Program-made: the position numbers and the translations under genes
Notes under the pieces: generated by a model
What the model was told of the DNA's origin: nothing
The model's input: only the letters and a program-made list of their open reading frames with translations
Database searches by the model: none
Assembly (NCBI GenBank): GCA_021772055.1
Contig: JAETNR010000024.1
Span: forward strand, 1 to 60,353
From: Blautia sp.
Lineage (GTDB): Bacteria; Bacillota; Clostridia; Lachnospirales; Lachnospiraceae
Direction of reading: 5' to 3'
DNA: 60,353 bases
In this document: one piece after another, positions 713 through 41,470 of the stretch
Numbering within the stretch: position 1 is the stretch's first letter
How the letters are laid out: each line of letters starts with the position of its first letter

Positions 713-736
713 ACGCTTATTTCATACGTGCTCAAT

Positions 737-24465: not shown

Positions 24466-25347
24466 ATGGCTGATCAGAAAATAGATAATCTTTTAAATCT
24501 TGCAATGGATTCTACACCTCAGGAGCGGGAAAAATCCTGGAATTTGAATGTTGGATATGATGAAGCGCTACAATTGTGGGATGTGGTGGTGAAATACAGC
24601 GGTGGTGAGGAGGGACTTTCCGGGGAGGGAATCACAGTAGTGCCGCTGCTTGGTGGATATGCGGTGGTGACATTGCCGGAGAGTGCACTGGAGGCATATT
24701 CCGAAAGGACACAGATTGAATTTATCGAGAAGCCGAAGAGACTGTATTTCAGTGATTACCAGGCGAATTTTGCAAGCTGTATTACACCTGTGCAGAGCGG
24801 CAGTGTCTTGCCGGGAATGGGAGACGGGGGGCTTTCCGGGCGGGGAATCCTGATTGGAATCGTGGATTCCGGTGTGGATTACAGGCACCGGGATTTTTGT
24901 AATGCAGATGGAACTACCCGGATTTTAAAACTGTGGGATCAGAGCGGTGTGGCGGAGCAGGAGCAGACGTGGCCCCGCAGGCCGCCCAAAGGATATGCAC
25001 TGGGGGTGGAATATACGCAGGATATGATCAACGCTGCCCTTAAACTGCCTGCATCAGAAGGATATCAGATTGTACCGGAGCGGGATTTCAGCGGTCATGG
25101 AACTTCGGTTCTTGGAATTGCGGCGGGAAACGGCAGGGCTTCCGATGGGGTGAACAGAGGCGTTGCATATGAAAGCGATATTATTGCCGTTAAATTAGGA
25201 ATTCCCAGGGAAAATTCTTTTCCAAGAACTACGGAGCTGATGCAGGGAATTGATTATCTGGTGCGGCAGGCCCTTGCTCTTGGACGGCCGATGGTGATCA
25301 ACATCAGCTTTGGAAATAATTATGGCTCCCATGAGCCTTGTAATTAG
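24466..25347 (+). pseudogene. N-terminal half of a subtilisin-like protease, split by a mobile element
   Basis: Native codons run to 25332 and the frame then reads five element-derived residues before TAG. The part is an S8 family peptidase like the clostridial Csp-type subtilases: a prodomain-like start, then the catalytic Asp in GIVDSGVDYRHRDF and the catalytic His in DFSGHGTSVLGIAAGNG. The strand ending NISFGNNYGSH is continued exactly by RGDSLLETYID at 41498. The missing catalytic Ser is in that distal part. The original enzyme was probably a cytoplasmic or spore-associated protease; no signal peptide is seen. Confidence 0.92.
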
Positions 25348-25354
25348 GGGAAGA
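25321..25354. other. Left attachment site of the integrated element (attL)
   Basis: Host sequence ends in GGCTCC followed by the crossover bases CA (25330-25331). The element side then carries the arm TTGTAATTAGGGGAAGA (25338-25354), which mirrors the arm at the right end. See the right site at 41471-41506. Confidence 0.82.
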
Positions 25355-25400
25355 ATAAAGAAAACATTGATGTTTCCTGCATTTGCGGACATTCAGTGTT

Positions 25401-25571
25401 TTACTTTTTTTCATCATTGGTTGTAATTTTAGTCTTATAATACTCTGTCAGAATCATGTTGATCTGCTGAGAACGTGTACGGAAGTTTTCTTTCGCATCT
25501 TTATCAATCTCAGCGACAAGTTCTTTGGAGAGAGTAGTATAGACTTGGACATTGTTGGAACTGATAGCCAT
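25401..25571 (-). CDS. Small ribbon-helix-helix DNA-binding protein
   Basis: A 56-aa protein read from the ATG at 25571, behind the strong site CGGAGGTG. The sequence starts MAISSNNVQVYTTLSKELV and continues with FRTRSQQINMILTEYYKT: one beta strand followed by two helices, as in Arc/CopG regulators. It is the outermost gene at the left end, beside attL. Such proteins often regulate excision, partition or antitoxin genes; here no toxin partner is fused, so a role in controlling the element is likely but unproven. Confidence 0.75.
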   Translation of the reverse strand: MAISSNNVQVYTTLSKELVAEIDKDAKENFRTRSQQINMILTEYYKTKITTNDEKK

Positions 25572-25695
25572 GTGGCACCTCCGGTTTAATATAATAGCCT
25601 TATTCTACCATACATCTTTGGGATGGGCAATCTTAACCGAAAACAGATGCATTATTTGATATAGATTCACATAAACTAAAAAGGATATATTCACC

Positions 25696-25724
25696 TTGAC
25701 AAACTTGTTTGGAAAGGCTATGAT
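25696..25724 (+). promoter_or_regulatory. Strong promoter of the small RNA before the AbiF-like gene
   Basis: Perfect TTGACA (25696-25701), 17-base spacer and TATGAT (25719-25724). Transcription would begin near 25731, right at the structured RNA, about 110 bases before the toxin gene start. Confidence 0.8.
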
Positions 25725-25730
25725 ATATCC

Positions 25731-25796
25731 AGTGATCGCACTATGGAAACTTGAGAAGCCCATAGTCCGGAAGGCTCCTGCGGGAGCCTTTCGTTA
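25731..25796 (+). ncRNA. Candidate antitoxin RNA of the AbiF-type system
   Basis: About 65 bases between a consensus promoter and the AbiF-like gene. It folds into a stem ACTATGG (25740-25746) with CCATAGT (25760-25766), and then a terminator-like hairpin GGCTCC (25773-25778) with GGAGCC (25783-25788) followed by TTTCGTT. There is no open frame or ribosome site inside. AbiF-type HEPN toxins are reported to be controlled by an adjacent structured RNA, so this is the expected partner. RNA identity and ends are inferred. Confidence 0.75.
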
Positions 25797-25841
25797 TTTA
25801 TGGAAATAAATTTGCAGAATTAATGAAAGGTGGTGGAAGAC

Positions 25842-26783
25842 TTGGAGAAAAAGCAATTTCTAACATATGATGAACAGATTACTTTTCTGGAAGAAAAGAA
25901 AGGTCTGATGATTTCTGACAAAGAATATGCAAAAAAGATATTGCTTAAAATCGGGTATTTTCCACTGATTAACGGATATAAAGAAGTCTTTAAGCAGTCG
26001 ATCAATGATCAGTTCCAGAAGGGAACAACGTTTGAAGATATATATGAGTTGTATAGCTTTGATAATGAATTAAGAAATATTTTTCTCAAATACATACTAA
26101 TGGCAGAACGAAATATAAAATCATCGTTATCATATCATTTTTGCAAAGAATATGGAGATTTGCAGTCAGACTATCTGAGCGTGAACAATTATGATTATAC
26201 TGGCAAGAAGAAAAATGTCATAAATAAAATGGTAAAGATTATGTCTGGGCAGTTACGATATGACAGCGATTATGTTTATATTCGGCATTATATGACTACA
26301 TACCAATATGTTCCATTGTGGGTGTTAATGAACGTTCTTACGATTGGACAGTTATCAAAAATATATGCCAGTCAGAAAGGTCGTATACAGATTAAAGTCT
26401 GCCAGGACTTTGGTCCTCTGAAAGTAAATGAGATGGGTAAAATGCTGGCGGTTATGACAAAGTTCAGAAATGTTTGTGCTCATAATGATCGTCTGTTTGA
26501 TTTTCGTACAAAAGATGCATTGTTGGATAGAAATATTTATGAACGCTTATTGATTCCTAAAGAAAAAGGTCGTTACAAATATGGTAAGAATGATCTCTAT
26601 GCACAGGTTATTATTTTAAAATTATTATTATCAGATGAAGATTTCCGTGTTTTCTTTCATGATTTAAAAGTATGCTTCAAAAAGCATCCGATACATAAAG
26701 AAATACTTGAGAAAATGGGATTCCCAGAGAACTGGGAACGGATTGGGAGAATCAAGAAATATACAAAATCAGATATGTATTAA
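25842..26783 (+). CDS. AbiF/AbiD-type abortive-infection protein (HEPN RNase-like)
   Basis: About 313 aa, Abi_2 family (PF07751). The region from residue about 200 contains FRNVCAHNDRLF, an R-x4-H HEPN motif (Arg209, His214) typical of RNA-cutting toxins. Conserved upstream blocks include KIGYFPLINGYKE, YELYSFDNELRNIF and PLWVLMNVLTIGQLSKIY. Earlier GTG starts exist at 25830 and 25833, but TTG 25842 is best spaced after AAAGGTGG and fits the family start. It lies just downstream of a structured small RNA with its own promoter. Expected role: toxin that cuts cellular RNA upon phage attack unless restrained by the RNA; it may also stabilise the element. Confidence 0.87.
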   Translation: MEKKQFLTYDEQITFLEEKKGLMISDKEYAKKILLKIGYFPLINGYKEVFKQSINDQFQKGTTFEDIYELYSFDNELRNIFLKYILMAERNIKSSLSYHFCKEYGDLQSDYLSVNNYDYTGKKKNVINKMVKIMSGQLRYDSDYVYIRHYMTTYQYVPLWVLMNVLTIGQLSKIYASQKGRIQIKVCQDFGPLKVNEMGKMLAVMTKFRNVCAHNDRLFDFRTKDALLDRNIYERLLIPKEKGRYKYGKNDLYAQVIILKLLLSDEDFRVFFHDLKVCFKKHPIHKEILEKMGFPENWERIGRIKKYTKSDMY

Positions 26784-26791
26784 ATTTTTAC

Positions 26792-26839
26792 AGGACTGTT
26801 GTTTGATAGAAAATGTATCATCTATGGAGCAACAGTCCT
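26792..26839 (+). terminator. Hairpin after the AbiF-like gene
   Basis: AGGACTGTTG (26792-26801) and CAACAGTCCT (26830-26839) form a 10-bp stem followed by TTTAAG. It lies between convergent genes and may stop transcription both ways. Confidence 0.7.
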
Positions 26840-26865
26840 TTAAGTTATAGTCCTTTTTATGAGAA

Positions 26866-28575
26866 CTATAGTTCCATATCATGTGATTTTCTCTTAGACC
26901 GGACAGGCTGATTTCTTCGCGTTTCCTGTTTCTTTTGATATTCAAGTTCCCATGCCCGATGAGAAAAAACATCAGGATCCTCCACATTAAGATAGTCTAC
27001 CTCTTCGGCTGCAATGTCACGGCGGTGATAGTCATAATATTTACCAAAAGTTGCTTTGAGTTGGGCAATCAGATTATCCCGGAAATCTGGGCGGATCTGG
27101 ATTCGGGTGTCCAATAATTCAAGATATTGCCCTGGTTCCGAAAGAAATGATTCCTCACGGAAAGCCGCTGCATCTTTTTTGAGTTGTGCTTTGAGCGTAA
27201 CATCCTGAGAATCCAGTACATCCAGATTCTTGTTCATCTGGTCATATTTCTTAGAAAGATTGATCATGTCTTTATCTGTGGAACACTCTGCCTGAAATAT
27301 GAGCTGCTCTTTCCGGGATTTCAGTTCTTCTATTTCTTCCGTTACTGTGGTTAGCTGTTGATTCAATTTTATATGCTGGATAGGATTCAGAATACGGGTT
27401 TTATCCTTCTGTAAATTCAGTTCTTTCTTTTCAGCGATTTTGGCTTTGAGCTTTTTCTTAACGGTATTGTATTTATTCAGGATGGGATGAAAGTGCTGTA
27501 TCCAGTCATGGATCACTTCTTTTTGCATTTCATTGTGAAGCAAATGATATTGAGTAAATATCATATGCTTTCGGATGGCTTCCATCGTTTCTGCAATGAC
27601 AGGAATAGATCTTTCCACTGCCTGTGCCAGCTTAGCAACCTGTGCTTTTAATTCCCGGAGCATTTTATTATCGGCACGAATCTGGCGGTTGATTTCACAA
27701 CGGTCGGATATTATACCTTTCTTTTCCATATTCTGTGCGATATAGCCCTCATGAATGGTAGGCTGTTCGGTGATTCCCTGATCTGCAAAGCTGCGGTGAT
27801 CGATGGATGCGTGTATCTGATTTTGAGAAAGCATTTTATTTACAGCCTCTGCCCAATTTTCTCTCCAGAGACAGATTTGCTCTTCGCTGTTCCACCTCTC
27901 GGAAATGGGATTTTGCCTGCCGTATCGGGTGCTTTTCGGATGCTTGTCTACACGCTCGTATCCTTTTTCCAGTGCTGTAGATGGAGTCAGATATATTTTC
28001 TTCTTGCCTGCCTGATAACGGTATTGCTTCTCCCATCCTTCCTTTTGTGCTTCTTTAAATTCCGCGGCAGTAAATCCTTTTTCTTTACCATCCTTTATAC
28101 AAAGATATTCTTTTTCTGTTTTATACTGCCATGTCCCGTTTTCGTTCAATGGACGGACAGTAAGAAGAATGTGTGCATGGGGGTTGTAACCGTCGGTATC
28201 GTGGATGGCAAAGTCGGCACACATTCCCAAATCTACAAAGTTCTTTTGAATAAAATCCCGAAGGAGAGAGATGTTGCTGTCGGTATCCAGTTCTATGGGA
28301 AGAGCTACAACAAATTCTCTCGCCAGTCGGCTGTCTTTTGTTTTTTCAGCAGCCTCCACAGCATTCCAGTGCTGCTCTCGGTTCTTCCATTCAGGTGGAG
28401 CTATTGGTGGAAGCATTACTTCCTGATATACCAGCCCATGTTTTCGGGTATAGTCATGCTGGATGCCATCATAATCATTGTACATCCGGCTACAGCTCAT
28501 ATAGGCGGAAGCGGCAACGGCAGATCGCCCGGAGCCCCGGCTGACAACCTTGGCTTCCATATGGTAAATTGCCAT
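26866..28575 (-). CDS. MobA/MobL-family relaxase
   Basis: About 569 aa. The N-terminal relaxase domain shows motif I in MAIYHMEAKVVSRGSGRSAV and the metal-binding histidines in NPHAHILLTVR; REFVVALP is also typical. The C-terminal half is a long helical, partly coiled-coil tail. It nicks the transfer origin and pilots the strand during conjugation using another element's secretion machinery. An ATG at 28581 is in frame, but 28575 is better spaced from AAAGGAGG. Its likely target, a MOB_Q-type oriT, lies 290 bases upstream. This relaxase class matches that oriT class. Confidence 0.92.
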   Translation of the reverse strand: MAIYHMEAKVVSRGSGRSAVAASAYMSCSRMYNDYDGIQHDYTRKHGLVYQEVMLPPIAPPEWKNREQHWNAVEAAEKTKDSRLAREFVVALPIELDTDSNISLLRDFIQKNFVDLGMCADFAIHDTDGYNPHAHILLTVRPLNENGTWQYKTEKEYLCIKDGKEKGFTAAEFKEAQKEGWEKQYRYQAGKKKIYLTPSTALEKGYERVDKHPKSTRYGRQNPISERWNSEEQICLWRENWAEAVNKMLSQNQIHASIDHRSFADQGITEQPTIHEGYIAQNMEKKGIISDRCEINRQIRADNKMLRELKAQVAKLAQAVERSIPVIAETMEAIRKHMIFTQYHLLHNEMQKEVIHDWIQHFHPILNKYNTVKKKLKAKIAEKKELNLQKDKTRILNPIQHIKLNQQLTTVTEEIEELKSRKEQLIFQAECSTDKDMINLSKKYDQMNKNLDVLDSQDVTLKAQLKKDAAAFREESFLSEPGQYLELLDTRIQIRPDFRDNLIAQLKATFGKYYDYHRRDIAAEEVDYLNVEDPDVFSHRAWELEYQKKQETRRNQPVRSKRKSHDMEL

Positions 28576-28635
28576 AGGCATGAACCTCCTTTCTGTGATG
28601 GTGTATGATTTGAATTTGTCTTTTATGGGGCTGTG

Positions 28636-28658
28636 GTTTTATTCAAAACTGAATAAAA
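28636..28658. repeat. Inverted repeat upstream of the relaxase gene
   Basis: TTTTATTC and GAATAAAA face each other across a short spacer (AAAACT). It could be a regulatory site for the mob operon or part of the transfer region. No function is shown. Confidence 0.5.
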
Positions 28659-28806
28659 GTTGCCGGTGGCAGGTTTTATCAGGCAGTCATATCCGGTAAA
28701 TGTTTTTAGCCGAGTGTTTCGGAAAAGCCGAAATACTTACAATCGGATAGAAGAAGATTGTAATGGCTGCATAGCCGGTGTTGCCTGCAACAGCGGATAG
28801 CCCTCG

Positions 28807-28880
28807 GCAGAGCGCACGAGCCTGACCAACGGGAAGGATACCACCGCCTCTTTGAGGTGGTGAGTAAGTGCGCCCTTCGG
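28807..28880. other. Origin of transfer (oriT), MOB_Q type
   Basis: CCACCGCCTC-TTT-GAGGTGG forms a hairpin at 28841-28860, directly followed by TAAGTGCGCCCT at 28865-28876. This layout, inverted repeat followed by TAAGTGCGCCCT, is the hallmark of the RSF1010/R1162 family oriT, where the relaxase nicks within the conserved run. An outer pair GCGCAC (28812-28817) and GTGCGC (28868-28873) also faces it. It lies between the DUF3847 gene and the relaxase gene, as expected. Confidence 0.82.
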
Positions 28881-28897
28881 GAGTAAAATATCATTAT

Positions 28898-29119
28898 CTA
28901 CAGTCCTTGTAGCCGGATCATCAGTTCCCGCTTCAGGAGATCCAAATCCATTTCCCGGATATGTGGAGCAACGCTTTCCAGAATTGCTCCTTCCTGGATC
29001 AATCGGTGCGTTCTAGTGTTACGTTCTTTCCTGCGGTTCCTTGCTTCGGCTTCCTCCTGTCGGTGTTTTGCCTGTAAAAGTGCTTTTTCTTCGGATGTCA
29101 TTGTTTTTTTATTTGCCAT
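28898..29119 (-). CDS. DUF3847-type small mobilization accessory protein
   Basis: A 73-aa, highly charged helical protein (KALLQAKHRQEEAEARNRRK, then LIQEGAILESVAPHI). This type sits beside MobL relaxases in clostridial elements and resembles MobC-like accessory factors in position. It is separated from the relaxase gene by the oriT, so it may help form the relaxosome. The ATG follows AAGGAGACGCC. Confidence 0.75.
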   Translation of the reverse strand: MANKKTMTSEEKALLQAKHRQEEAEARNRRKERNTRTHRLIQEGAILESVAPHIREMDLDLLKRELMIRLQGL

Positions 29120-29206
29120 ATCTGGCGTCTCCTTTTCTATGCCCGTATCCGGGCTTTTTGGTCTTACAATTCTTTAAATTGGTACTGTTTTGAATAGTCA
29201 GTGGCA

Positions 29207-29250
29207 GTGATACTTTCTCCCATGTCTGGAAAGGGAGATTGCAGTATCAC
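29207..29250. repeat. Nested inverted repeat between rep and mob genes
   Basis: GTGATACT (29207-29214) pairs with AGTATCAC (29243-29250), and inside it TCTCCC (29216-29221) pairs with GGGAGA (29233-29238). It lies in the 190-base gap between the DnaC-like and DUF3847 genes. It could be a terminator-like structure, a single-strand origin or a protein site. Confidence 0.6.
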
Positions 29251-29310
29251 CGCCTGAGAATAGTGGTAATAATGCGGTAACATTTCCTGAATTAATTAGT
29301 ACTGGATTCA

Positions 29311-30144
29311 TTACAGCAGTATTTTCTTCGCTTCCTGTAGATTGGCAGAGGCATTGTCCTGCCGGATGTTGCGGTTGTTGATCCGGATGGGGGCACACCG
29401 TTCAAGAATCCGGTCGTAAATTCTTCTATGTGCCACGTCAGGTGCATTATTCAGTTCCGTCAATGTGAGATTGGTGGTTACAATCAGCGGTTTTTTGCTG
29501 CGGTAACGGCTGTCGATCACATTGAATACCTGTTCAAGGGCAAATTCAGAATTGCGTTCAATCCCTAGGTCATCAATGATTAGCAGGCTGTATCGGTTCA
29601 GACTGTCAATGAACTGGTTCCTGTCTTCGAAGTGCATTCCGGTCAGGGTATTCAGGATCTGGGAGAAATTCGTCATCAGCACCGGAACGCCTTTTTCCAG
29701 GAGGGCATTGGCAATACAGCCAGCAAAGAAGGATTTCCCGGTACCGACATTTCCCCAGAGGAGAAGGCCGGAGGATCTGGCTTTCATATCTTCCCAGTTC
29801 TCCACATATTTGTGGGCGTATGCCATCTCCGGGTTGATGCCGTTATCTTTGTCAAATGTATAATCATAGAGTGCCTTATCCTGTAATCCGCTGGCTTTCA
29901 TCCGCTCGATTTCTGCCTGTTCCTCCAGCAGTTTCCGTCTGGTTTCTTCCTGGTCATAGAGTTCCTGCTGGCATTTGCACCGAATGGGCGGCATGAATAC
30001 CCTGCCCTGCAAGGTGTACCTGCCCTGCCGGGGTGTATGGCATTTGGCGCAGTAGATCAGGCGGTCGGATTCATGAAAATATTCATCCGGCTGCAATTCT
30101 CTGGTTGGGGTCTGATTGGTCAGTTCTTCTGTTAACTTTCTCAT
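29311..30144 (-). CDS. DnaC/IstB-like ATPase (helicase-loader type)
   Basis: A 277-aa AAA+ protein with Walker A GNVGTGKSFFAGCIANALL and Walker B LLIIDDLGIERNSE, plus an N-terminal zinc-finger-like region (CAKCHTPRQ, CKC). This family loads the replicative helicase onto origins. The gene overlaps the RepA gene by four bases (ATGA), forming a replication operon with it. Supports autonomous replication of the excised element. Confidence 0.88.
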   Translation of the reverse strand: MRKLTEELTNQTPTRELQPDEYFHESDRLIYCAKCHTPRQGRYTLQGRVFMPPIRCKCQQELYDQEETRRKLLEEQAEIERMKASGLQDKALYDYTFDKDNGINPEMAYAHKYVENWEDMKARSSGLLLWGNVGTGKSFFAGCIANALLEKGVPVLMTNFSQILNTLTGMHFEDRNQFIDSLNRYSLLIIDDLGIERNSEFALEQVFNVIDSRYRSKKPLIVTTNLTLTELNNAPDVAHRRIYDRILERCAPIRINNRNIRQDNASANLQEAKKILL

Positions 30145-30857
30145 AATGTTTCGTACTCCTCACTTTCGTAAATGCTTTGCCGGGAAGGAGGATTGTCCTG
30201 TCTTGCCCAGCTGATGATGGTGGCTGCATGGTTCTGGTAGTACTTTCCGGTGGAGGCCATGTAGCCGGATAAACGTTCGATATATTCCTGCCAGTCTGAA
30301 ACCGACTGCCTGACTTCTTCCAGTTCCTTTTCTGACAGGAATACATTTTGAAATTTTCCATAGGGGGAGCGCTTCCCCTGACTCTCTCTTTTGGATAAAT
30401 CGTTCTTAGTTCTCTCTTTCTTATTACTGGACAGTTTTCTGTCTGTCTCAGGGAAAGAATCCTGTCTGTCAGCAGGATAGTTTTCTGTCTGTCTCGGGGA
30501 AAGAATCCTGTTTGTCTGGCAGAAAGCCCTTTCCGGGAATTTTATATAGATCCGGTTGGGATGCCCCGCTCCCTGACGTTTCCGAAGGATCAGATCCTGC
30601 CTTTCCAGTGCGGCCAGGGATGTTTTGATTGTCATCTGGCTTTTATGGAGAACCTCAGCCATTGCTTCGATGGTAAAGTAGAGGAACACATGCCCGGATG
30701 TATCTGTCCAGCCTTCGTTTTTCAGGGAGAGCCTTGCACGGTCAAGCAGGACCATATAAAGCAGCTTGGTTGTTTCATTCAGCTCCATATCCAGAAGAAA
30801 CCGGGGGAATACCATATAGGGCGGCAGTCTGGTGTTTTCTGTCAGAAATTCCGTCAT
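30141..30857 (-). CDS. RepA_N-type replication initiator
   Basis: A 238-aa protein whose N-terminus (RLPPYMVFPRFLLDMELNET, then TTKLLYMVLLDRARLSLKN) matches the RepA_N DNA-binding domain found in plasmids and integrative elements of Firmicutes. A winged helix is seen in TIEAMAEVLHKSQMTIKTSL. The C-terminal part is variable, as usual for these proteins. It is translationally coupled to the DnaC-like gene downstream. Expected role: initiation at an origin, commonly located inside the rep gene itself. Confidence 0.87.
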   Translation of the reverse strand: MTEFLTENTRLPPYMVFPRFLLDMELNETTKLLYMVLLDRARLSLKNEGWTDTSGHVFLYFTIEAMAEVLHKSQMTIKTSLAALERQDLILRKRQGAGHPNRIYIKFPERAFCQTNRILSPRQTENYPADRQDSFPETDRKLSSNKKERTKNDLSKRESQGKRSPYGKFQNVFLSEKELEEVRQSVSDWQEYIERLSGYMASTGKYYQNHAATIISWARQDNPPSRQSIYESEEYETL

Positions 30858-30881
30858 GTGTCCACCTCCTTTGCGTCCTGG

Positions 30882-31769
30882 TTATTCTCCGAGGAAATCC
30901 CAGTCTACATCTGTTTCTGGGGCTGCTTCTTCGTGGGGCGTTAAGGATACCCTGCTTTGGGGCTCCCTTTGTGCCATCCCTGCTGTCAGACCGGAAAGGA
31001 AGAGGGGAAGCGTTTGGTTCAGGCTCTTTTCCACGGCTTCTATAATCTGAGCGACAAAACGTTCTTCCCGTTCCCGAGTTTCCAGATATGGGGTGGAGAT
31101 ATCCGCTGCTTTGAACCGCAGAACCTGTTCTACTGTGGCTTCTTCGATCTTTACACCGAACCGGTCGAGGATGGAATTCTTTGCTGCAATCATGCACTGG
31201 TTAACCCCGAATTTTTCTGTCCAGCAACGGCTTTCCTGTGCTTTTTTATTGTTGATATACAGGATGTTCATGGTGCCGTTCCCGATATTTGCAAGGAGAT
31301 TGGTGCCTTTCAGAGTACTCAGAAGGTTTACGATTGCGGGGTATCCCTGTGGATAAAGGCTGCATCCAACAAAGCGGATGTGGTAATCCTTGTTGTTGAA
31401 GCGGTAGCTGACTTCTGAATTTTGAAGCAGATAGGAGCGAAATTCTTCCCGCTGGTTTCGGATCCATGTCAGGGGAAGCCCGGCAGCCAGATGGACATCT
31501 GCTTCCTGGATAGAAAAGACGTTCAGTTCCCTTGCCACTGCCATCAGTGTCAGGAGATAATAGTCTTCATCCATCGCTTTGTCCGGGATAAATTCCTTGT
31601 GTCCTTCGCCGATCCGGTAATAGGTGCCATTATATTCCAGAATGTTCCCGGTGAAAATCGGCTCTGTTTCGTAAGCTGTGATTCCGGTGGGCATGACAGT
31701 GTTTGCAGTCTTAATGTTGCCGTAGCCATGATCCACGGCGATGATTTTTGTGTTTTTGATTTCTCTCAT
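30882..31769 (-). CDS. ParM/StbA-type plasmid segregation actin
   Basis: A 295-aa actin-like ATPase. Phosphate-binding loop 1 is IIAVDHGYGNIKTAN, loop 2 is NIGNGTMNILYINN and the adenosine site includes FLSGLTAGM. The frame is open upstream, but ATG 31769 behind ATGGAGGGATT gives the normal start. Such filaments push plasmid copies apart. It is 24 bases upstream of repA in the same transcription unit. No separate ParR is recognised; the ribbon-helix-helix protein at the left end is a possible but distant candidate. Confidence 0.87.
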   Translation of the reverse strand: MREIKNTKIIAVDHGYGNIKTANTVMPTGITAYETEPIFTGNILEYNGTYYRIGEGHKEFIPDKAMDEDYYLLTLMAVARELNVFSIQEADVHLAAGLPLTWIRNQREEFRSYLLQNSEVSYRFNNKDYHIRFVGCSLYPQGYPAIVNLLSTLKGTNLLANIGNGTMNILYINNKKAQESRCWTEKFGVNQCMIAAKNSILDRFGVKIEEATVEQVLRFKAADISTPYLETREREERFVAQIIEAVEKSLNQTLPLFLSGLTAGMAQREPQSRVSLTPHEEAAPETDVDWDFLGE

Positions 31770-32034
31770 AAAAAATCCCTCCATTTTTGTATTGATTTCC
31801 CTGGCAGTTCGTACCTGCGTGGTACTGGTCTGCTTTGGGAAAAGCATACAAAAAATGGAGAGATAAGGCATTGAGAGGAAATTGAGTTTGAATTGATTTA
31901 TAATGATAGCAGTTGTTGTGGATAATGAACGTGTGTCTGTATTTGAAGGGCTATACATATCTGTTTAGAAAGAAAATTTTATGATATACTTTGTCTGAAA
32001 ATTTAAGTAACAGAAAGAGAGGTCAAGACATAAC

Positions 32035-32559
32035 ATGATTGAGATAAGAAGAGCAGGATGCGGAGAAGAACATACGATTTTAGAATTTTATTGTCAATTG
32101 ATTGATCATATGCAGGATACAGAGTATCCTCTCAGATGGAAAAAGGGTGTATATCCTGTATTGTCGGATATTGCTGGTGCTTTGAATATGGGGGCATTAT
32201 ATGTAGCAGAGGAGGATGGTAACATAGCAGGAGCGTTTATTGTGAACCACATCCAGGGAGAGGGATATCAGTTAGTAGACTGGAATATAAAGGGCAGTGA
32301 CACAGAGATTGCAGTGCTTCATCTTCTGGCGACCGCTCCAGAATGCCAGGGAAAAGGAATCGGAAGAAAAATGTTGGAGAAAGCAGTGGAAATCTGTAGA
32401 AGTGAAAATGTTAGTTCCATTCGTCTGGATACACTCCCATGGAATCTGCCCGGAAAGAGACTATATGAAAGTTTTGGATTTCAGTATAAAGGAGATATCA
32501 AACTGGACTATCCGTCTACCGGAAAAATATCTTTTAGTATGTATGAATTTGATTTGTAA
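32035..32559 (+). CDS. GNAT-family N-acetyltransferase
   Basis: A 174-aa single-domain acetyltransferase. The acetyl-CoA loop is in LLATAPECQGKGIGRKMLEK (the Q-x-x-G-x-G motif QGKGIG), followed by NLPGKRLYESFGF, typical of motif B. Acceptor unknown; small-molecule resistance or protein modification are both possible. Cargo gene, oriented opposite to the replication genes, closed by a hairpin at 32588. Confidence 0.85.
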   Translation: MIEIRRAGCGEEHTILEFYCQLIDHMQDTEYPLRWKKGVYPVLSDIAGALNMGALYVAEEDGNIAGAFIVNHIQGEGYQLVDWNIKGSDTEIAVLHLLATAPECQGKGIGRKMLEKAVEICRSENVSSIRLDTLPWNLPGKRLYESFGFQYKGDIKLDYPSTGKISFSMYEFDL

Positions 32560-32587
32560 TAATATTATGAGAAAGATGAATCATATC

Positions 32588-32628
32588 AAAAAGGCGTCTC
32601 CATAAAACCGTGGAGGTGCCTTTTCTTT
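32588..32628 (+). terminator. Terminator after the GNAT gene
   Basis: AAAAGGC-GTCTCCA (32588-32602) pairs with TGGAGGTGCCTTTT (32611-32624), followed by CTTT. The stem is symmetric enough to serve the convergent AraC gene too. Confidence 0.8.
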
Positions 32629-32649
32629 CGGGAAATATGGTAAACGGGT

Positions 32650-33552
32650 TTACAGAAAGTGTTTCTGTTTCCGATATTCTGTTGGGGTTAACTTGTAGCG
32701 TTTTTTGAATAATCTGCAGAAATAGTCAACGTTATGAAATCCTGTCTCAGAAGAAATGAGACTGACTTTTTTCTCGGTTTTTGAAAGCAACTGACCGGCC
32801 TGTTTTAAACGGTAATTAATGAGATAGTTAACCGGCGTTATATGTAAATATTTCCGAAACAGATTCAAAGCGGTACTCTTACTGACCATTGCCTGTTCTG
32901 CAATGTCATCCAATGAGATACTCCGTGAGTAATTCAGGTGGATAAATTGCATCATGAGCTGTAAACGGGCTTGAGAAGCAGTGGAATGCTCCTGGTGTTC
33001 TTCCGGGTATGAAATGTCGGTATTTTCAGATATCTCCAGCCAGAGATTCTGAAGGAGAGAACTGGTAAGGAGTTCTTTGGTTGAAACGGAATCCTGTGCA
33101 GAAATAATTTGCCGCATGACAGATAAAACCTTTGCCTGCCAGCATATTTCTTTATGAAATATGAGAAATGGCAGTGGGGAAGAAATAATCGGAAGAATAT
33201 ATTTCTGATAAATCAGGCTGTCGCGAGGGGCAATAAAAGAAGGCATAAATACGAAATTGGGAATGAGGGCTTTTGATGGAGAATAAAAGCGATGGAGTAC
33301 CTTTGTATTAATGAAGATCCCATTTCCTTCGGTTAAATCAAATCGGTCTTCTCCAATCCAGAAAGTAACGGTTCCGGATTCAATAAAAATAAATTCCAAT
33401 TCTGTATGCCAGTGCCATTCGATACAGTTGAAATCAAAAACGGACAGATCTTCATAATAAAACTGGAAAGGATAGAGATTGCTTCCGTGCTGAACTGCCT
33501 CCATTAAATCTTCATCTGTAATGATTTTCGTATAGGTTGTATTTATATTCAT
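32650..33552 (-). CDS. AraC-family transcriptional regulator
   Basis: A 300-aa regulator: an N-terminal cupin sensor (WHWHTELEFIFIESGTVTFW, then GNGIFINTKVLHRFY) and a C-terminal double helix-turn-helix (SLDDIAEQAMVSKSTALNLF and VSLISSETGFHNVDYFCRLF). ATG 33552 follows AAGGAAGTTTCT; an upstream in-frame ATG lacks a ribosome site. It is divergent from the MFS transporter unit, and the AT-rich 110 bases between probably hold both promoters and its binding site. It probably activates uptake of the sensed compound. Confidence 0.88.
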   Translation of the reverse strand: MNINTTYTKIITDEDLMEAVQHGSNLYPFQFYYEDLSVFDFNCIEWHWHTELEFIFIESGTVTFWIGEDRFDLTEGNGIFINTKVLHRFYSPSKALIPNFVFMPSFIAPRDSLIYQKYILPIISSPLPFLIFHKEICWQAKVLSVMRQIISAQDSVSTKELLTSSLLQNLWLEISENTDISYPEEHQEHSTASQARLQLMMQFIHLNYSRSISLDDIAEQAMVSKSTALNLFRKYLHITPVNYLINYRLKQAGQLLSKTEKKVSLISSETGFHNVDYFCRLFKKRYKLTPTEYRKQKHFL

Positions 33553-33668
33553 AGAAACTTCCTTCTTTGAAACATACTTTACGATATTATACAATAAATA
33601 TCAGAAATAATTCAATGAAAACAACAGAATTATATTATATAATTCAATAAAAAATGAGGTGAAAGGAT

Positions 33669-33728
33669 ATGATGTTTAAATGGTTACATGAAAGTAAAAT
33701 AAGGATGGTGATTCCTGATATTTTATGA
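33669..33728 (+). CDS. 19-residue upstream open frame before the MFS unit
   Basis: ATG 33669 follows GAGGTGAAAGGAT, a good ribosome site. The 19-residue frame (MMFKWLHESKIRMVIPDIL) ends in a TGA that overlaps the next start as ATGA. It may be a leader peptide coupling translation to the following small gene. Not recognised. Confidence 0.4.
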   Translation: MMFKWLHESKIRMVIPDIL

Positions 33729-33934
33729 GAACAATAGTGAAGATAGAGAATTCCGTATACGGAAAGAGTCTTTCTATGTATGTAGACAGTACGAGTAAAG
33801 TAAATGAATTAATGCTCGATCTGATAGAGGCAGGATTTACCGTTGACTATGAGCCTCGTTATATATCGGGAAATTATGAAGGATGCTTTCTGTGTGAGGA
33901 TGGAAATGTGATTAAAATATGTTGTAGAAAATAA
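33725..33934 (+). CDS. Small uncharacterised protein before the MFS transporter
   Basis: A 69-aa protein, not recognised. It begins MRTIVKIENSVYGKSLSMYV and has two cysteine-containing stretches near the end (GCFLCEDG, KICCRK). No ribosome site of its own; its start overlaps the stop of a 19-residue frame, so it is probably translated by coupling. It is 17 bases before the MFS gene. Confidence 0.5.
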   Translation: MRTIVKIENSVYGKSLSMYVDSTSKVNELMLDLIEAGFTVDYEPRYISGNYEGCFLCEDGNVIKICCRK

Positions 33935-33950
33935 AAGAGGAGTGATGACC

Positions 33951-35129
33951 ATGCCAAATTATCGAAAAACAAAAAGAGCCTGTTATATGGGATTTATTAC
34001 ACAGGCAATTGCAGCTAATTTTGCCCCATTGTTATTTTTAAAATTTCATAATGATTATCAGATTACACTTGGAAAAATCGCATTGATTTCTACCTGCTTT
34101 TTCCTTACACAGTTGTTGGTAGACTTGTTTTGTGCAAAGTTTGTGGACAAAATAGGGTATCGTATCTGTATTGTTGCTTCTGAGGTATGTTCCGCAGCAG
34201 GATTGGTTGGTCTGGCTTTTCTGCCGGAGCTTTTGCCGGAACCGTTTGTTGGAATTATCCTGAGTGTGATTGTATATGCAGTCGGAAGTGGTCTGATTGA
34301 AGTGCTTTGCAGCCCGATCGTAGAGGCGTGTCCATTTGATAACAAAGAGGCAACGATGAGTCTGCTTCACTCTTTTTATTGTTGGGGAGCAGTGGGAACG
34401 ATTGTGATCTCCACACTGTTTTTTGCAGTGTTTGGCGTGGACAGCTGGAAATGGCTGGCTGTATTATGGGCACTTGTTCCGGCCATAAATATCTATAATT
34501 TTGCAACCTGCCCGATTGAGCATTTGGTAGATGAGGGGCAGGGAATGGGAATAAAGGAACTGTTTCGCAAACCTCTTTTCTGGCTTTCCATATGCTTAAT
34601 GATCTGCTCCGGTGCATCAGAACTGGCTATGGCACAATGGGCATCTGCTTATGCGGAGGCTGCTCTGGGACTGTCAAAGACAATTGGCGATCTGGCCGGT
34701 CCCTGCATGTTTGCTGTTACAATGGGAATCAGTCGTGTGATTTTCGGAAAATATGGTGATAAAATAGATCTGATGAAATTTATGACCGGATCCGGAATTT
34801 TATGTGTGATATGCTACCTGCTGGCTTCTGTTTCGTCGAATCCGATAACAGGTTTGATTGGATGTATTATCTGTGGTTTTTCTGTTGGGATTATGTGGCC
34901 CGGCACAATCAGTATTTCATCAGAAAGATTTCCGGCAGGTGGAACGGCTATGTTTGCTTTGCTTGCTATGGCGGGGGATCTGGGTGGAAGCATAGGTCCG
35001 GGGATTGTTGGACGTGTTACACAAAGTGCTGGAGACAATATTCGTGCAGGTATGGGAGTTGGACTTTTGTTCCCGGTTACTTTATTGATCATGCTTTTTA
35101 TTTTTGCAAGGCAAAAGAATCATAAATGA
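33951..35129 (+). CDS. MFS transporter (sugar-transporter-like)
   Basis: A 392-aa polytopic membrane protein with about twelve segments. MFS motif A is suggested by LFCAKFVDKIGYRICIVAS between segments 2 and 3, and GISRVIFGKYGDKIDLMKF marks the equivalent loop in the second half. It resembles fucose/glucose-type MFS permeases of gut Firmicutes. Starts at GTG 33942 or ATG 33951; the latter is 8 bases after GAGGAG. The AraC gene is divergent. Substrate unknown; import of a sugar sensed by the AraC cupin is likely. Confidence 0.85.
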   Translation: MPNYRKTKRACYMGFITQAIAANFAPLLFLKFHNDYQITLGKIALISTCFFLTQLLVDLFCAKFVDKIGYRICIVASEVCSAAGLVGLAFLPELLPEPFVGIILSVIVYAVGSGLIEVLCSPIVEACPFDNKEATMSLLHSFYCWGAVGTIVISTLFFAVFGVDSWKWLAVLWALVPAINIYNFATCPIEHLVDEGQGMGIKELFRKPLFWLSICLMICSGASELAMAQWASAYAEAALGLSKTIGDLAGPCMFAVTMGISRVIFGKYGDKIDLMKFMTGSGILCVICYLLASVSSNPITGLIGCIICGFSVGIMWPGTISISSERFPAGGTAMFALLAMAGDLGGSIGPGIVGRVTQSAGDNIRAGMGVGLLFPVTLLIMLFIFARQKNHK

Positions 35130-35132
35130 AAT

Positions 35133-35193
35133 TTTTTCCCAAAAGTGGGAAAAAGGCTGAGAATAGTCAACGGCGGATAATGATGTCCGCCGT
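35133..35193. terminator. Two terminator hairpins between convergent MFS and STAND genes
   Basis: TTTTTCCCA (35133-35141) pairs with TGGGAAAAA (35146-35154). A second stem ACGGCGGA (35170-35177) pairs with TCCGCCGT (35186-35193). Together they can stop transcription from both sides. Confidence 0.75.
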
Positions 35194-35266
35194 AAATTTA
35201 TTTCTGTTTATTTATTGAAGCCAAGATGCCTTTGGCCAGTGCGATACTAATCTGTGGGTACAATTC

Positions 35267-37096
35267 CTAAATTTCCTGACATTTTTCTTCAATCAATTCC
35301 GGCTCATCTGCCCAGACATCCTCATAGATTTTCATAGCCTTTTTGAAATGGGTTTTAGCCTGTGAGATATTTGCTGTAATCAGGCAGATATTTCCCATGG
35401 CTTCCTGCACCTGTGCATAATCCAGACAGTGATCGGAATTATAGTCTTTGATAATCTGTGCCAGTTTCTGGAGAGCCGACATTGCCCGCTCTGGTTCCTG
35501 CATTTCTGTCAATAAGGCGGCGTAATTGTTGATCTGCGGGATACTGTCATTGGTGTAAAGCAGCTTATACTGTTCCAGTAGCAAGATACCCTTTTCCATG
35601 TGTCCTTTTGCAAATTCTGTCTGACCGTTTATGCGATAAAGACCTCCAAGATTGGCATGAAGGTTGGAAACAAGGTGGGCATTACCGTCTGTGGTTTCTT
35701 TGATTTGCGCAAGTGCTTCTTTTTCCAGCTTGATGGCTTTTTCTGGTTTTGTTTCCATTGTTGCCTGGTAATCCAGCAACAGTGCACGGTCAGAAGAGGT
35801 GCCATGATTATTTCCTTTCAAAAGTTGTTTCAATTCCCGGATAATTTCTTTCATACCTTTCTGGTAGTGGTATTTCTCCATATATGGGAAGACATCCTCT
35901 AAAAATAGAAGGTATTTGGATATATCATCTTTTTCAATCAGGTGAATGATATTTTCCACTGTCTGGAACATTTTTTTGTAATAGTTGACTTCCGTGCCGT
36001 GCATCAAACATATTTTTTGAAGAGAATCCAATAAAGTGTGGCAGGTTGTGACGGAAGGTCTGGTTTCAGAAAGGGCGATTTCCTGAATCATTGGGTGCAG
36101 GGAAATGGTATGCCGGGTGTTTGCCTGCACAAAACCTGTCTCAATCAGGTCATTGATGTCATTTAAAGTAGTTTGTCCAAGCCAGTCAGCAAAGATACGG
36201 GCGGAAATACCGGCAGGAGGCAGAAAACACAGATCACGCATAATATCCTGTTGTTCTTGTGAAATGGAATAAAGGGAGAACAGGGTGTGAATATGGTTAT
36301 AGTAAGTTACCTTGCTGTTCTGTCCGTCCTTGATGGCGTTGATTTTGTCTTCATTTTCAAGGGACGCCTTTTCCTCCCGGAGTTTTTCCAGTAATTGCTT
36401 TGGAGGTAAAATCCCATTTTCCAGAAGTTTTGCTGCCAGTTCTACCGCAAAGGTATGGCGGTGAACGGTTTGTATAATCTCTTCTACAAGTGTCCGGTGT
36501 TCTTCTGCTTCCGAATAAAATGAAGATGCCAGCTGAAACAAACTGGAGGGTTCCTGTATTTCTTTTAGCTGCAGAATGCAATGTCCATCAAATTTACTTC
36601 TTGTCGTAAATAGAACCCGGCAGCGGTATTTCAACACTACCGATAGAAAACTGTCCTGTGTAGCAGTCACATTGAAATTATCTATGATGAGCAGGGTATC
36701 ATCCTTCAGAGAGCGAAGAAAACGGTTGTGTTTTCGGAAACGTTCTTCTTTGCAGTCTTCTGGCAGATCGTCAGTGAAATCCATATCTGTAACTGACTGA
36801 TGTAAATCTCCGGTATATTCGACATAAAGGATGTTGGTATAATATTTTTTGTATTGTTTCGCATATGCTTTCGCCATCTCACTCTTTCCGATTCCGGCAA
36901 TCCCATAGAGAAATACTTTGCTGTTTTCTTCCAACATTGTATGTAACTCTCCCAGTTCTTCTTCCCTTCCAACAAAATGACGGCACGGCCTGGGCACTTC
37001 ACTGTCCATGATATAATCCAGGACAACCGGGGAGAGGGCACCGCCTGCGATCAGTTTCTGATTTCTGGTATCCCTTTTAACAAATTGACGCTCCAT
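35267..37096 (-). CDS. STAND (NB-ARC-like) ATPase with C-terminal TPR repeats
   Basis: A 609-aa protein. Order: VGREEELGELHTMLEE (entry to the domain), Walker A YGIAGIGKSEMA, Walker B LLIIDNFNVT, sensor RVLFTTRSKFD, a winged-helix region near residues 280-340, then helical TPR-like repeats to the end (LVSNLHANLGGLYRINGQTE, VQEAMGNICLITANISQAKT). STAND proteins oligomerise on sensing a ligand and act in defence or regulation. No effector domain is visible at this end. The ATG at 37096 lacks a ribosome site; the frame stays open upstream and joins the next feature through a frameshift. The functional form was probably about 750 aa. Confidence 0.82.
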   Translation of the reverse strand: MERQFVKRDTRNQKLIAGGALSPVVLDYIMDSEVPRPCRHFVGREEELGELHTMLEENSKVFLYGIAGIGKSEMAKAYAKQYKKYYTNILYVEYTGDLHQSVTDMDFTDDLPEDCKEERFRKHNRFLRSLKDDTLLIIDNFNVTATQDSFLSVVLKYRCRVLFTTRSKFDGHCILQLKEIQEPSSLFQLASSFYSEAEEHRTLVEEIIQTVHRHTFAVELAAKLLENGILPPKQLLEKLREEKASLENEDKINAIKDGQNSKVTYYNHIHTLFSLYSISQEQQDIMRDLCFLPPAGISARIFADWLGQTTLNDINDLIETGFVQANTRHTISLHPMIQEIALSETRPSVTTCHTLLDSLQKICLMHGTEVNYYKKMFQTVENIIHLIEKDDISKYLLFLEDVFPYMEKYHYQKGMKEIIRELKQLLKGNNHGTSSDRALLLDYQATMETKPEKAIKLEKEALAQIKETTDGNAHLVSNLHANLGGLYRINGQTEFAKGHMEKGILLLEQYKLLYTNDSIPQINNYAALLTEMQEPERAMSALQKLAQIIKDYNSDHCLDYAQVQEAMGNICLITANISQAKTHFKKAMKIYEDVWADEPELIEEKCQEI

Positions 37097-37107
37097 ACCA
37101 AAGGAGA

Positions 37108-37539
37108 TCAGCTTTGCCAGAAACAGGAGCCGTGATCCGCAGGTTTGTACAGTAATGCCAGTTTGTTCTTTTTCGCTCCAGAGATGGTGGGATCCTGCAT
37201 AAACAGGGTGTAGACATCCTGCAGTGCCTTGCTGCAGTCGGTCATCAGTGGCAGAAGATTTTGCTGTATTGTTTCAGCCAGTTTTTCCTGCTTACTTGGT
37301 TTGGCATAGTAAGTAGAGATTTTAGGGCTGATCTTCGCCTGTCCTGTCATCCACCGGCAGACAAGCCCATTATCAAAAGAAAAATCTTTGCTTTCCGGGC
37401 TGTCCATAAAATCCTCAAATACTTCATATAAAAATTCAGGCTGGCTCATCTGGTTACTTTCGCTGATATGATTTTTTAAACATGTCATTATAGAGCTAAA
37501 ATCGCATCGATCCAATTGCAATCCCACCTTTCGTATCAT
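37108..37539 (-). pseudogene. N-terminal domain of the STAND protein, separated by a frameshift
   Basis: 143 codons of a helical domain I do not recognise (SQPEFLYEVFEDFMDS, LVCRWMTGQAKISPKI, NLLPLMTDCSKALQDVYTLF). It ends GSCFWQS*, but the overlapping frame continues as FLAKLISFGMERQFV into the STAND gene. A one-base loss near 37115-37120 explains the break; no slippery heptamer is seen. AAAGGTGG lies inside the frame, so translation may begin at an in-frame TTG around 37515-37521 rather than at the ATG. It could be the effector or sensor domain of the protein. Confidence 0.6.
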
Positions 37540-37700
37540 TTCTTCTTTTATCTGGTACTACATTTCTTTTATCATAGCACAAACATATGTTCTGCACAAT
37601 GGTATTTCAATATTGTGAACAAAAGTAACAGGGAAACAGTCAATCTGCTCTCAATTTCCATTCAATGCATTTTGTTTAATAAATAGTTAGAATCGAGTCA

Positions 37701-37858
37701 GGCTTTCGAAAGCCGAATTCAATTCATACAGAACTTTTTAAGAACGCCTCCGGCGTTCTTGCCGCGGCACGGCTGGGCACGAAGTGCTCTACTGCTTGAC
37801 GTGCCTGCGATCCGCCGGAGGTTACAACTTTCAGCAGAGGAAATTTGCTGAAAGTTGT
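37701..37858 (+). ncRNA. Highly structured leader before the TnpW-like gene
   Basis: A 160-base GC-rich region in an AT-rich context packed with inverted repeats: GGCTTTCGAAAGCC (palindrome, 37701-37714), AAGAACGCC with GGCGTTCTT (37740-37760), CCTCCGGCG (37747-37755) with CGCCGGAGG (37813-37821), and ACAACTTTCAGCA with TGCTGAAAGTTGT (37824-37858, 13 bp perfect). The CCTCCGGCG element can pair either locally or with the distant copy, so two exclusive folds exist. It could be a regulatory RNA, a regulated leader or a recombination site. Confidence 0.5.
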
Positions 37859-37914
37859 ACAATCCTGCCGGCATAGGATGTAAAGAGGACTGTATGCTGA
37901 AGGAGGCATATAGC

Positions 37915-38121
37915 ATGAAAACGTTATTCGTTCCCGCAGAGCAGACAGTAACATCAATGGAAACTCGGTGTGCAGACAACAGCTATGAAGAATCTGACAA
38001 GATTCAAAATGAAATGGTAAGTTATGAGCATGATGGGTATCAGGTTCGTGTACATTTCAATGGTAATAAAACATTAATGCAGTGTATACAGAACCTGGTG
38101 GAACGAAGAATTGGAGGTTGA
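37915..38121 (+). CDS. Small transposon-encoded protein (TnpW-like)
   Basis: A 68-aa protein starting MKTLFVPAEQTVTSMETR, with a C-terminal part (YQVRVHFNGNKTLMQCIQNL) resembling the small TnpW-type proteins that precede large serine recombinases in clostridial elements. ATG 37915 follows AAGGAGGCATATAGC; the upstream frame from 37855 runs through the hairpin and is not used. It lies 76 bases before the first recombinase. Probably an accessory or excision-control factor; the function of TnpW proteins is not settled. Confidence 0.65.
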   Translation: MKTLFVPAEQTVTSMETRCADNSYEESDKIQNEMVSYEHDGYQVRVHFNGNKTLMQCIQNLVERRIGG

Positions 38122-38197
38122 TTTTATCCAACTTCTATTGCAAGATAAAGACAATTAAAGACAATGACCATACAAGACTAAAGAAAAGAGGGATAGG

Positions 38198-41406: not shown

Positions 41407-41470
41407 ATGAGCAAGTAACGAAGTGGATTGCGAATATCCGCTTTACAAACTGCAATTTTTTTTTATAGTA

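What the first reader, a model, noticed from the sequence alone, without database searches (positions are those of the whole stretch)
25696..26783. AbiF-type HEPN toxin behind a promoter-driven structured RNA: candidate RNA-controlled toxin-antitoxin unit
Seen: a consensus promoter (TTGACA, 17 bases, TATGAT), a 65-base RNA region with two hairpins and no frame, then an Abi_2 protein with an R-x4-H motif (RNVCAH). Known: HEPN motifs mark RNA-cutting toxins, and AbiF-like proteins with neighbouring structured RNAs have been proposed as relatives and possible ancestors of Cas13. Inference: here the RNA acts as antitoxin and the pair protects or stabilises the mobile element.
Basis: partly seen in the sequence, partly recalled or inferred. 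Interest (0 to 1): 0.85.

Follow-up and report, generated by a model that had tools for sequence, protein, structure and literature searches.

The report
AbiF antitoxin RNA that phages copy
A bacterial mobile element carries a gene for a predicted RNA-cutting toxin behind a small structured RNA gene that likely keeps the toxin silent, and the same kind of RNA occurs without any such toxin gene on dozens of phage contigs, some of them inside clusters of tRNA genes, where it would act as a decoy that disarms the host's toxin.

Summary
A consensus promoter (25696-25724), a two-hairpin RNA (25731-25793) and an Abi_2/AbiF-family HEPN protein (25842-26783; R209-H214 motif) sit at the left end of a 16-kb integrative element that interrupts a subtilase gene. 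Such modules are published as RNA-controlled toxins (AbiF/RCd22; PbAbiF-AbiFr, PDB 8vz6). New: this RNA is not Rfam's abiF RNA (RF03085; no match at E<=10) but another hairpin class. Over 54 sequences its outer stem pairs in 378 of 378 cells, with double-sided changes in 6 of 7 pairs. It goes with one half of the AbiF protein tree, RF03085 with the other. In 299 family genomes 35 of 68 RNA hits precede an Abi_2 gene; the other 33 do not, some beside abiF remnants. Viral contigs mostly carry the RNA without toxin: 13 of 20 for this class, 55 of 56 RF03085-type places (6 of 13 and 15 of 56 within 100 nt of a tRNA gene). Eight of eight named phage records with RF03085-like RNAs, among them Bacillus SBSphiJ7 and phiNIT1, lack Abi_2. 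Best reading: the RNA silences AbiF, and phages carry copies as decoys. Neither step is tested by experiment.

The parts
25696..25724 (+). sigma-70 type promoter TTGACA-17-TATGAT
   Evidence: 34 of 35 related loci (one of them, L047, with a broken abiF) have a promoter of at least 9/12 ending 6-7 nt before the RNA model start, random positions 1.6%
25730..25770 (+). R1 RNA: conserved leader AGUGAUCGC, outer stem 25740-25746/25760-25766, 5' bulge AAA, inner stem 25750-25752/25756-25758, triloop
25768..25793 (+). second hairpin, intrinsic-terminator-like (UGCG tetraloop)
25842..26783 (+). AbiF/AbiD-family (Abi_2) HEPN protein, 313 aa from TTG 25842 (317 aa from GTG 25830)
26466..26483 (+). HEPN motif R-N-V-C-A-H (R209-H214)
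   Evidence: read
25401..25571 (-). 56-aa ORF divergent from the RNA gene, in a stretch whose DNA is conserved at the left end of related elements; ribbon-helix-helix-like by eye only
   Evidence: no profile result (one search failed and was not repeated)
25333..41500 (.). integrative, probably mobilisable element (approximate ends) with the module at its left end; MobA/MobL 26866-28581, RepA_N 30141-30857, actin-like 30882-31958, serine recombinase 38198-39787; a second recombinase-like ORF 39784-41376 by eye only
   Evidence: uninterrupted gene in relatives
24466..25332 (+). left part of the interrupted CspB-like subtilase gene (right part about 41501-42260)

Best explanation
The locus is a small structured RNA gene followed by an AbiF-family HEPN gene, which likely work as an RNA antitoxin and an RNA-cutting toxin, and toxin-less copies of this kind of RNA on phages would act as decoys that switch the toxin off. 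Shown here: the order of promoter, RNA and gene; the covarying hairpin; its link to one AbiF clade; its presence without the gene in bacteria and on phages; the predicted fold. Inferred: one transcript starts near 25731, most of it stops at the 25768-25793 hairpin, and read-through makes the toxin mRNA; the RNA's leader, 5' bulge and loop, conserved although unpaired, hold the AbiF dimer inactive, as published for AbiF-Cd/RCd22 and PbAbiF-AbiFr; when infection upsets host transcription the RNA is lost first and AbiF cuts RNA, arresting the cell; a phage that brings the RNA re-silences the toxin. In five contigs (two distinct phage sequences) the RNA begins exactly after a tRNA-Met CCA, at the nucleotide where the window's promoter is predicted to start it.
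For: Abi_2 158 bits; nearest solved chain 8vz6 by sequence, 1.2e-13, and by fold, TM 0.79/0.82, from a model with pLDDT 94.2. RNA: 94.5% of cells paired on 22 distinct rows, 96.7% on 54, covariation 0.552 against at most 0.178 when slid. 35 of 68 RNA hits in 299 genomes have an Abi_2 domain match 44-245 nt downstream on the same strand. Tree of 92 proteins: all 48 R1 rows lie in one half, all 11 RF03085 rows in the other. abiF remnants beside intact RNA in 4 of 12 solo loci by tblastn, 2 more by eye. Viral scans: 12 of 14 contigs toxin-less; all 14 pair 7 of 7 although the pattern fixes only one of the seven pairs, while 20 chance matches of a looser pattern pair 1-6 of 7. RF03085 type: 55 of 56 without AbiF within 1.6 kb, 49 of 49 contigs searched without Abi_2, 15 of 56 within 100 nt of a tRNA against 5.8% at random positions. 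Eight of eight named phage records lack Abi_2. Toxicity, RNA binding and neutralisation for the homologous C. difficile pair: PMC12373285 (abstract, passages, first part of the discussion).
Against: No expression, toxicity or binding data for this locus. [quoted passage not shown] No pseudoknot is supported. Five Bacilli relatives with upstream DNA present (L032-L036), and L101, L106 and L115, show no R1 match, so not every related AbiF has this RNA. Of 33 unlinked bacterial hits, 2 are second copies next to an AbiF gene, 14 were not read, and the weakest scores (23-30 bits) may be false. Some solo RNAs are clearly leftovers of decayed modules, so not every solo copy need be a decoy. Viral counts hold near-copies: L139/L143/L144, L135/L145 and L138/L140 are three phage types, and 5 of the 15 tRNA-adjacent RF03085-type places are near-identical. 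Of the 24 RF03085-pattern matches that failed the pairing rule, 5 also lie by tRNAs. Only 13 of 20 viral loci tested reach Rfam's gathering score, and only 1 of 8 named phages reaches E<=0.01. Hosts of the metagenomic phages are unknown, and viral contigs may be fragments.
Confidence: 0.8

Rival explanations
1. The RNA is only a cis leader: an attenuator or riboswitch-like element that controls abiF transcription and has no role as a separate RNA.
For: Terminator between promoter and gene; reported attenuation in RCd22 and a short terminated AbiD1 transcript (PMC12373285, passages).
Against: The hairpin and leader stand fully paired on phages and in bacteria with no Abi_2 gene to control. RCd22 is active in trans (PMC12373285, abstract).
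Confidence: 0.1
2. Solo copies on phages are leftovers of lost AbiF modules without a function of their own.
For: Bacterial solo copies with abiF fragments; at G263:C10 an RNA with a broken abiF lies 129 nt past a stretch that matches the same subtilase flank.
Against: No AbiF match in the solo phage loci tested (14 R1 loci; 55 RF03085-type places); intact pairing; recurrent placement by tRNAs and in different contexts and phage groups; the own promoter is missing in 11 of 12 R1 phage copies given, as if re-wired to another transcript.
Confidence: 0.2
3. The phage RNAs have another job (for example in tRNA-array processing or phage gene control), and AbiF systems recruited this RNA later.
For: Another small RNA of unknown role (skipping-rope) lies near tRNAs in two of the eight named phages; solo copies outnumber linked ones on viral contigs.
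Against: Two different hairpin classes, each tied to its own half of the AbiF tree, both show the same solo behaviour.
Confidence: 0.13
4. The RNA is a guide that directs AbiF to target RNAs, Cas13-like.
For: Proposed kinship of AbiD/F and Cas13 (PMC12165695, passages).
Against: No variable spacer-like segment: the unpaired positions are the conserved ones.
Confidence: 0.03

Closest known systems
AbiF-Cd / RCd22 of C. difficile prophage phi027 (PMC12373285)
   Same: Abi_2 toxin, promoter-RNA-terminator-gene order, RNxCAH motif, RNA antitoxin reported active in cis and trans
   Different: RCd22 carries two RF03085 motifs; the window RNA is one copy of a different hairpin class not found by that model
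PbAbiF-AbiFr (PDB 8vz6; Zilberzwige-Tal et al., known here only through citing papers and the PDB entry)
   Same: fold (TM about 0.8), catalytic R and H
   Different: 21% identical over the fold alignment; RNA architecture not compared
Rfam abiF RNA RF03085
   Same: small hairpin RNA linked to Abi_2 genes; also solo on phages
   Different: RF03085: outer stem, inner stem, long loop and a 6-nt 3' bulge. Window class: conserved single-stranded leader, 3-nt 5' bulge, 3-bp inner stem, triloop, separate terminator
ToxIN and other type III toxin-antitoxin systems
   Same: RNA antitoxin, attenuating terminator, toxin downstream
   Different: different toxin family and tandem RNA repeats; here HEPN and a single copy
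Phage escape from type III TA by pseudo-antitoxin RNA (pseudo-ToxI, recalled) or by TifA (start of abstract in the listing, PMC10853763)
   Same: phage product neutralises or mimics the antitoxin of an RNA-controlled toxin
   Different: here conserved RNA genes on many phages, some in tRNA arrays, for AbiF
abiF sRNA in cyanophage S-CREM1 (PMC9964418, passages)
   Same: a phage with an abiF RNA
   Different: there noted as a conserved sRNA probably functional in infection; the passages seen propose no anti-AbiF role

Membership tests
AbiF/AbiD (Abi_2) HEPN proteins | Abi_2 profile over the curated cut-off | tested here: met
   158.3 bits against 25.6
AbiF/AbiD (Abi_2) HEPN proteins | R-N-x3-H catalytic motif | tested here: met
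   R209, N210, A213, H214 invariant in 30 rows
AbiF/AbiD (Abi_2) HEPN proteins | fold of the solved PbAbiF | tested here: met
   8vz6_A E 1.1e-10, TM 0.79/0.82
AbiF/AbiD (Abi_2) HEPN proteins | RNase activity and toxicity | not testable with these tools
   needs expression
Rfam abiF RNA RF03085 | match to the covariance model | tested here: not met
   absent at E<=10 in the region and in the own genome (where 150 of 1302 first-look candidates were scored)
Type III toxin-antitoxin | RNA gene with promoter and terminator directly before the toxin gene | tested here: met
   by sequence:
Type III toxin-antitoxin | antitoxin made of tandem repeats | tested here: not met
   one R1 copy in the window; so called type-III-like only
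Type III toxin-antitoxin | RNA binds and neutralises the toxin | not testable with these tools
   shown for AbiF-Cd/RCd22 (PMC12373285), not here
Phage RNA anti-defence decoy | defence RNA present on phages without the defence gene | tested here: met
   12 of 14 R1 contigs, 49 of 49 RF03085-type contigs searched and 8 of 8 named phage records lack Abi_2; contigs may be fragments
Phage RNA anti-defence decoy | phage RNA blocks the defence during infection | not testable with these tools
   needs phage deletion test

The most novel reading that the evidence does not exclude
Phages of many kinds carry RNA-only anti-AbiF genes: toxin-less copies of two structurally different AbiF antitoxin RNA classes, part of them wired into tRNA arrays so that tRNA processing would release them with the native 5' end, so that infection brings its own antitoxin. 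The window's RNA founds the second class, absent from Rfam.
Probability: 0.55. Interest if true: 0.9.

Novelty: new variant of a known kind. Interest (0 to 1): 0.77.

Why it matters
AbiF toxins are regarded as kin of the ancestor of Cas13. A second, different antitoxin RNA class tied to a distinct half of the AbiF tree suggests that RNA and protein diversified together, which bears on how a toxin-silencing RNA could become a guide. Toxin-less antitoxin RNAs on phages, some of them laboratory phages of B. subtilis, would be a widespread RNA-based counter-defence, easily overlooked because such genes go unannotated (no abiF feature is listed in the stretches read of the eight named records), and would give one more reason why phage tRNA arrays hold non-tRNA RNAs. 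It can be tested with existing phages.

Tried and rejected
A leader-loop pseudoknot: not supported (pairs no better than shuffles). RNA as an RF03085 member: rejected. Guide RNA: no variable segment. Rfam hits Atu_C8 and sroH in the region: far below cut-offs. PADLOC does not separate AbiD from AbiF (AbiD for 9 of 9). A relaxed viral pattern gave 21 further contigs, of which 20 were chance matches. BLAST with short R1 queries against named phages gave chance hits (3 records; 42 records) apart from two fecal phage contigs that the model confirms; the RF03085 type gave better ones. Streptococcal satellites and a phage, an L. wadei plasmid and a Listeria phage have AbiF genes but no R1 match. Papers: Weinberg et al. 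2017 is not held (DOI from recall); Zilberzwige-Tal et al. did not appear in listings 10 and 22 and I did not look it up by id; so whether either describes this RNA class or phage solo copies is unknown to me. Of the papers listed by searches (capped lists in 22, 31 and 136), none that I looked into proposes phage abiF RNAs as anti-AbiF decoys.

Full report
Observation. The window holds TTGACA-17-TATGAT at 25696-25724 (11 promoter-like sites in the scanned stretch against 7.5 in shuffles), a 73-nt stretch that only 1 of 200 shuffles matches in folding energy, a terminator-like second hairpin at 25768-25793 and an ORF (GTG 25830 or TTG 25842 to 26783) that matches Pfam Abi_2 at 158.3 bits and PADLOC AbiD. 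Numbered from TTG 25842, R209, N210, A213 and H214 are invariant in a 30-row alignment. The nearest solved chain is 8vz6 (PbAbiF), by sequence at 1.2e-13 and by fold at TM 0.79/0.82 from an AlphaFold model with mean pLDDT 94.2.

The RNA is a class of its own. Rfam's abiF model RF03085 does not match the region at E<=10 or the own genome, yet matches near more distant AbiF genes. Fifty-four relatives were fetched with the protein. Model R1 finds the RNA in 35 of the 54 loci at 33.7 bits or more; of the other 19, five are cut at a contig start (L038-L040, L042, L045), five are Bacilli with upstream DNA but no match (L032-L036) and nine are remote. The RNA has a leader AGUGAUCGC, an outer stem, a 3-nt 5' bulge, a 3-bp inner stem and a triloop. 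On 22 distinct rows, picked because the motif was visible, 94.5% of cells pair and the covariation score is 0.499 against at most 0.174 when partners are slid; two L037 rows seem misaligned there and count against. On 54 distinct rows, some of them chosen by the model itself, the outer stem pairs in all 378 cells, six of its seven pairs change on both sides, and the score is 0.552 against at most 0.178. A leader-loop pseudoknot is not supported.

Linkage. 299 genomes drawn evenly from the family gave 68 R1 hits in 51 genomes; Abi_2 gave 137 hits in 91. Of the 68, 35 lie 44-245 nt before an Abi_2 domain match on the same strand. Conversely, of 62 Abi_2 hits of at least 140 bits 29 had an R1 hit; the 33 others mostly carry other RNAs or none visible. 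In 34 of 35 related loci (L047 among them, with a broken abiF) a promoter of at least 9 of 12 ends 6-7 nt before the RNA model (random positions 1.6%). In a 291-genome draw from the class, 10 genomes had a hit, five of them outside the family. A tree of 92 AbiF proteins (quick method, midpoint root, long-branch warnings; six near-copies dropped and six loci without a usable ORF) splits in two at SH-aLRT 100: all 48 R1 rows on one side, all 11 RF03085 rows on the other. Labels of L112-L114 rest on weak scores of 14.6-20 bits, L112's RNA lying after the gene; several RF03085 labels lie under the gathering score. The three unlabelled rows in the 50-row R1 subclade (L038-L040) are cut at contig ends.

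RNA without toxin in bacteria. Thirty-three of the 68 hits have no Abi_2 downstream; two of these are second copies beside an AbiF gene (G171, G017). I read 12 of them first: four show abiF fragments by tblastn and two more by eye, six none; seven more were fetched and read without a remnant search, one of these being the G171 second copy; 14 were not read. In [Ruminococcus] torques ATCC 27756 (L047) a gene that looks by eye like an IS200-type transposase lies between an intact RNA and a truncated abiF. Retained RNA beside a lost toxin gene is what an antitoxin would leave. The lower-scoring hits may include false ones.

RNA without toxin in phages. A pattern that fixes unpaired positions, and of the seven outer pairs only the invariant G-C, found 14 IMG/VR contigs. 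Two carry AbiF downstream, 12 do not, and Abi_2 is absent from those 12 whole contigs. All 14 outer stems pair 7 of 7; a looser pattern added 21 contigs, of which one pairs 7 of 7 and scores 47.1 bits (L169, no Abi_2 on its contig) and 20 pair 1-6 of 7 and are chance. A third pattern, designed from AbiF-linked sequences, found 5 contigs, all with AbiF. So 13 of 20 R1-positive IMG/VR contigs are toxin-less, with near-copies among them (L139/L143/L144, L135/L145, L138/L140). Among phage contigs of the INPHARED collection three have RNA and AbiF (L127, L128, L182) and one 4-kb contig the RNA alone (L183). Phage hallmark genes lie on several solo contigs (terminase, portal, endolysin, integrase). 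Six of the 13 lie within 100 nt of a tRNA. In L139, L143, L144 and in L135, L145 (two phage sequences) the RNA follows the encoded CCA of a tRNA-Met directly and precedes a tRNA-Arg, so that tRNA processing would free it at the nucleotide where the window's promoter is predicted to start it (inference). L139 also encodes a tRNA-His guanylyltransferase.

The sister class behaves alike. Of these, 56 have at least 5 of 6 outer pairs; 55 of the 56 have no AbiF match within 1.6 kb (five of the 55 have under 900 nt downstream), and none of the 49 contigs I submitted (of 55) holds Abi_2. Fifteen of the 56 lie within 100 nt of a tRNA on the same strand, five of these near-identical to one another, against 5.8% at random positions of the same loci; 5 of the 24 that failed the pairing rule also do. 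Rfam's own cut-off confirms 13 of 20 loci tested. BLAST of one such RNA against named phages listed 45 records, 35 of them Bacillus. Of eight records read (six, two), all lack Abi_2 over the whole record (the SBSphiJ1 and J7 records are marked partial). In P59, Lactobacillus P1, Brevundimonas Bajun and Rhizobium RHEph21 the RNA is within 100 nt of a tRNA, in phiNIT1 between tRNAs some 500 nt or more away. Rfam reports RF03085 at E<=0.01 in only one of the eight, though the core is visible in the sequences.

Mechanism. Published work on the homologous C. difficile pair reports a growth defect from AbiF, repression by RCd22 in cis and in trans, direct binding, and loss of toxicity in R202/H207 mutants (PMC12373285; abstract, passages and first part of the discussion read). 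A review describes the PbAbiF-AbiFr complex (PMC12737573, passages). By homology I infer the same here. The conserved unpaired leader, bulge and loop are the likely protein contacts. Phage copies would then be decoys; this is inference, at about 0.55. The main alternatives are leftovers of lost modules and an unknown phage function.

Mobile element. Six relatives have the subtilase gene uninterrupted: homology to the left flank ends at 25331 and to the right flank resumes at 41493-41501, so the element spans about 25333-41500. It has MobA/MobL, RepA_N, an actin-like protein and a serine recombinase, with a second recombinase-like ORF by eye. L307 and L314 share the element's left end up to 25656; L307 has other sequence after it and one search found no R1 RNA on that contig, so the module looks optional; L314 was not followed. 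Stabilisation or defence of the element is plausible but untested.

Prior print. The abiF RNA in cyanophage S-CREM1 was reported without an anti-AbiF reading in the passages I saw (PMC9964418). Searches showed me no paper proposing phage abiF RNAs as decoys or describing the R1 class; two relevant papers could not be read.

Noticed in passing
window 574-715 (+): FMN riboswitch, 104.3 bits.
   Followed up: no
window 35267-37096 and 37108-37539 (-): STAND/NB-ARC-like ATPase with a TPR match and a small neighbouring ORF on the same element; possibly a second defence module.
   Followed up: no
L098, L116, L117, L118 upstream of AbiF genes: A third upstream RNA-like pattern (AACAGAGUUGCC...) by eye that neither RF03085 nor R1 detects.
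   Followed up: no
L129, L130, L133, L053, L041 (streptococcal satellites and phage, Ruoffia, Avacholeplasma): Upstream of their AbiF genes a hairpin with a 5' bulge and a short inner stem, same topology as R1 by eye but not found by the model.
   Followed up: partly
L077 (1501 and 2567), L078 (1118 and 55), L127 (231 and 1321), L112 (1543), L037 (4810 and 4891): AbiF genes flanked by R1 RNA on both sides, followed by a weak match only (L112), or preceded by two tandem copies (L037).
   Followed up: partly
L047 4159-5230 ([Ruminococcus] torques ATCC 27756): Transposase-like gene (by eye) between an intact R1 RNA and a truncated abiF.
   Followed up: no
L317 3005-3075, L320 1929-1998: Skipping-rope RNA (RF02924) in the same phage tRNA regions as the abiF-like RNA.
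   Followed up: no
L139 12087-12911: Phage tRNA-His guanylyltransferase (Thg1) on the contig whose tRNA array holds the R1 RNA.
   Followed up: no
L056 (G000:C42:3-335): A second, contig-edge-truncated Abi_2 gene in the own genome.
   Followed up: no
L086, downstream of the solo RNA: Solo R1 RNA followed by a small ORF and a zeta-toxin-like start by eye.
   Followed up: no
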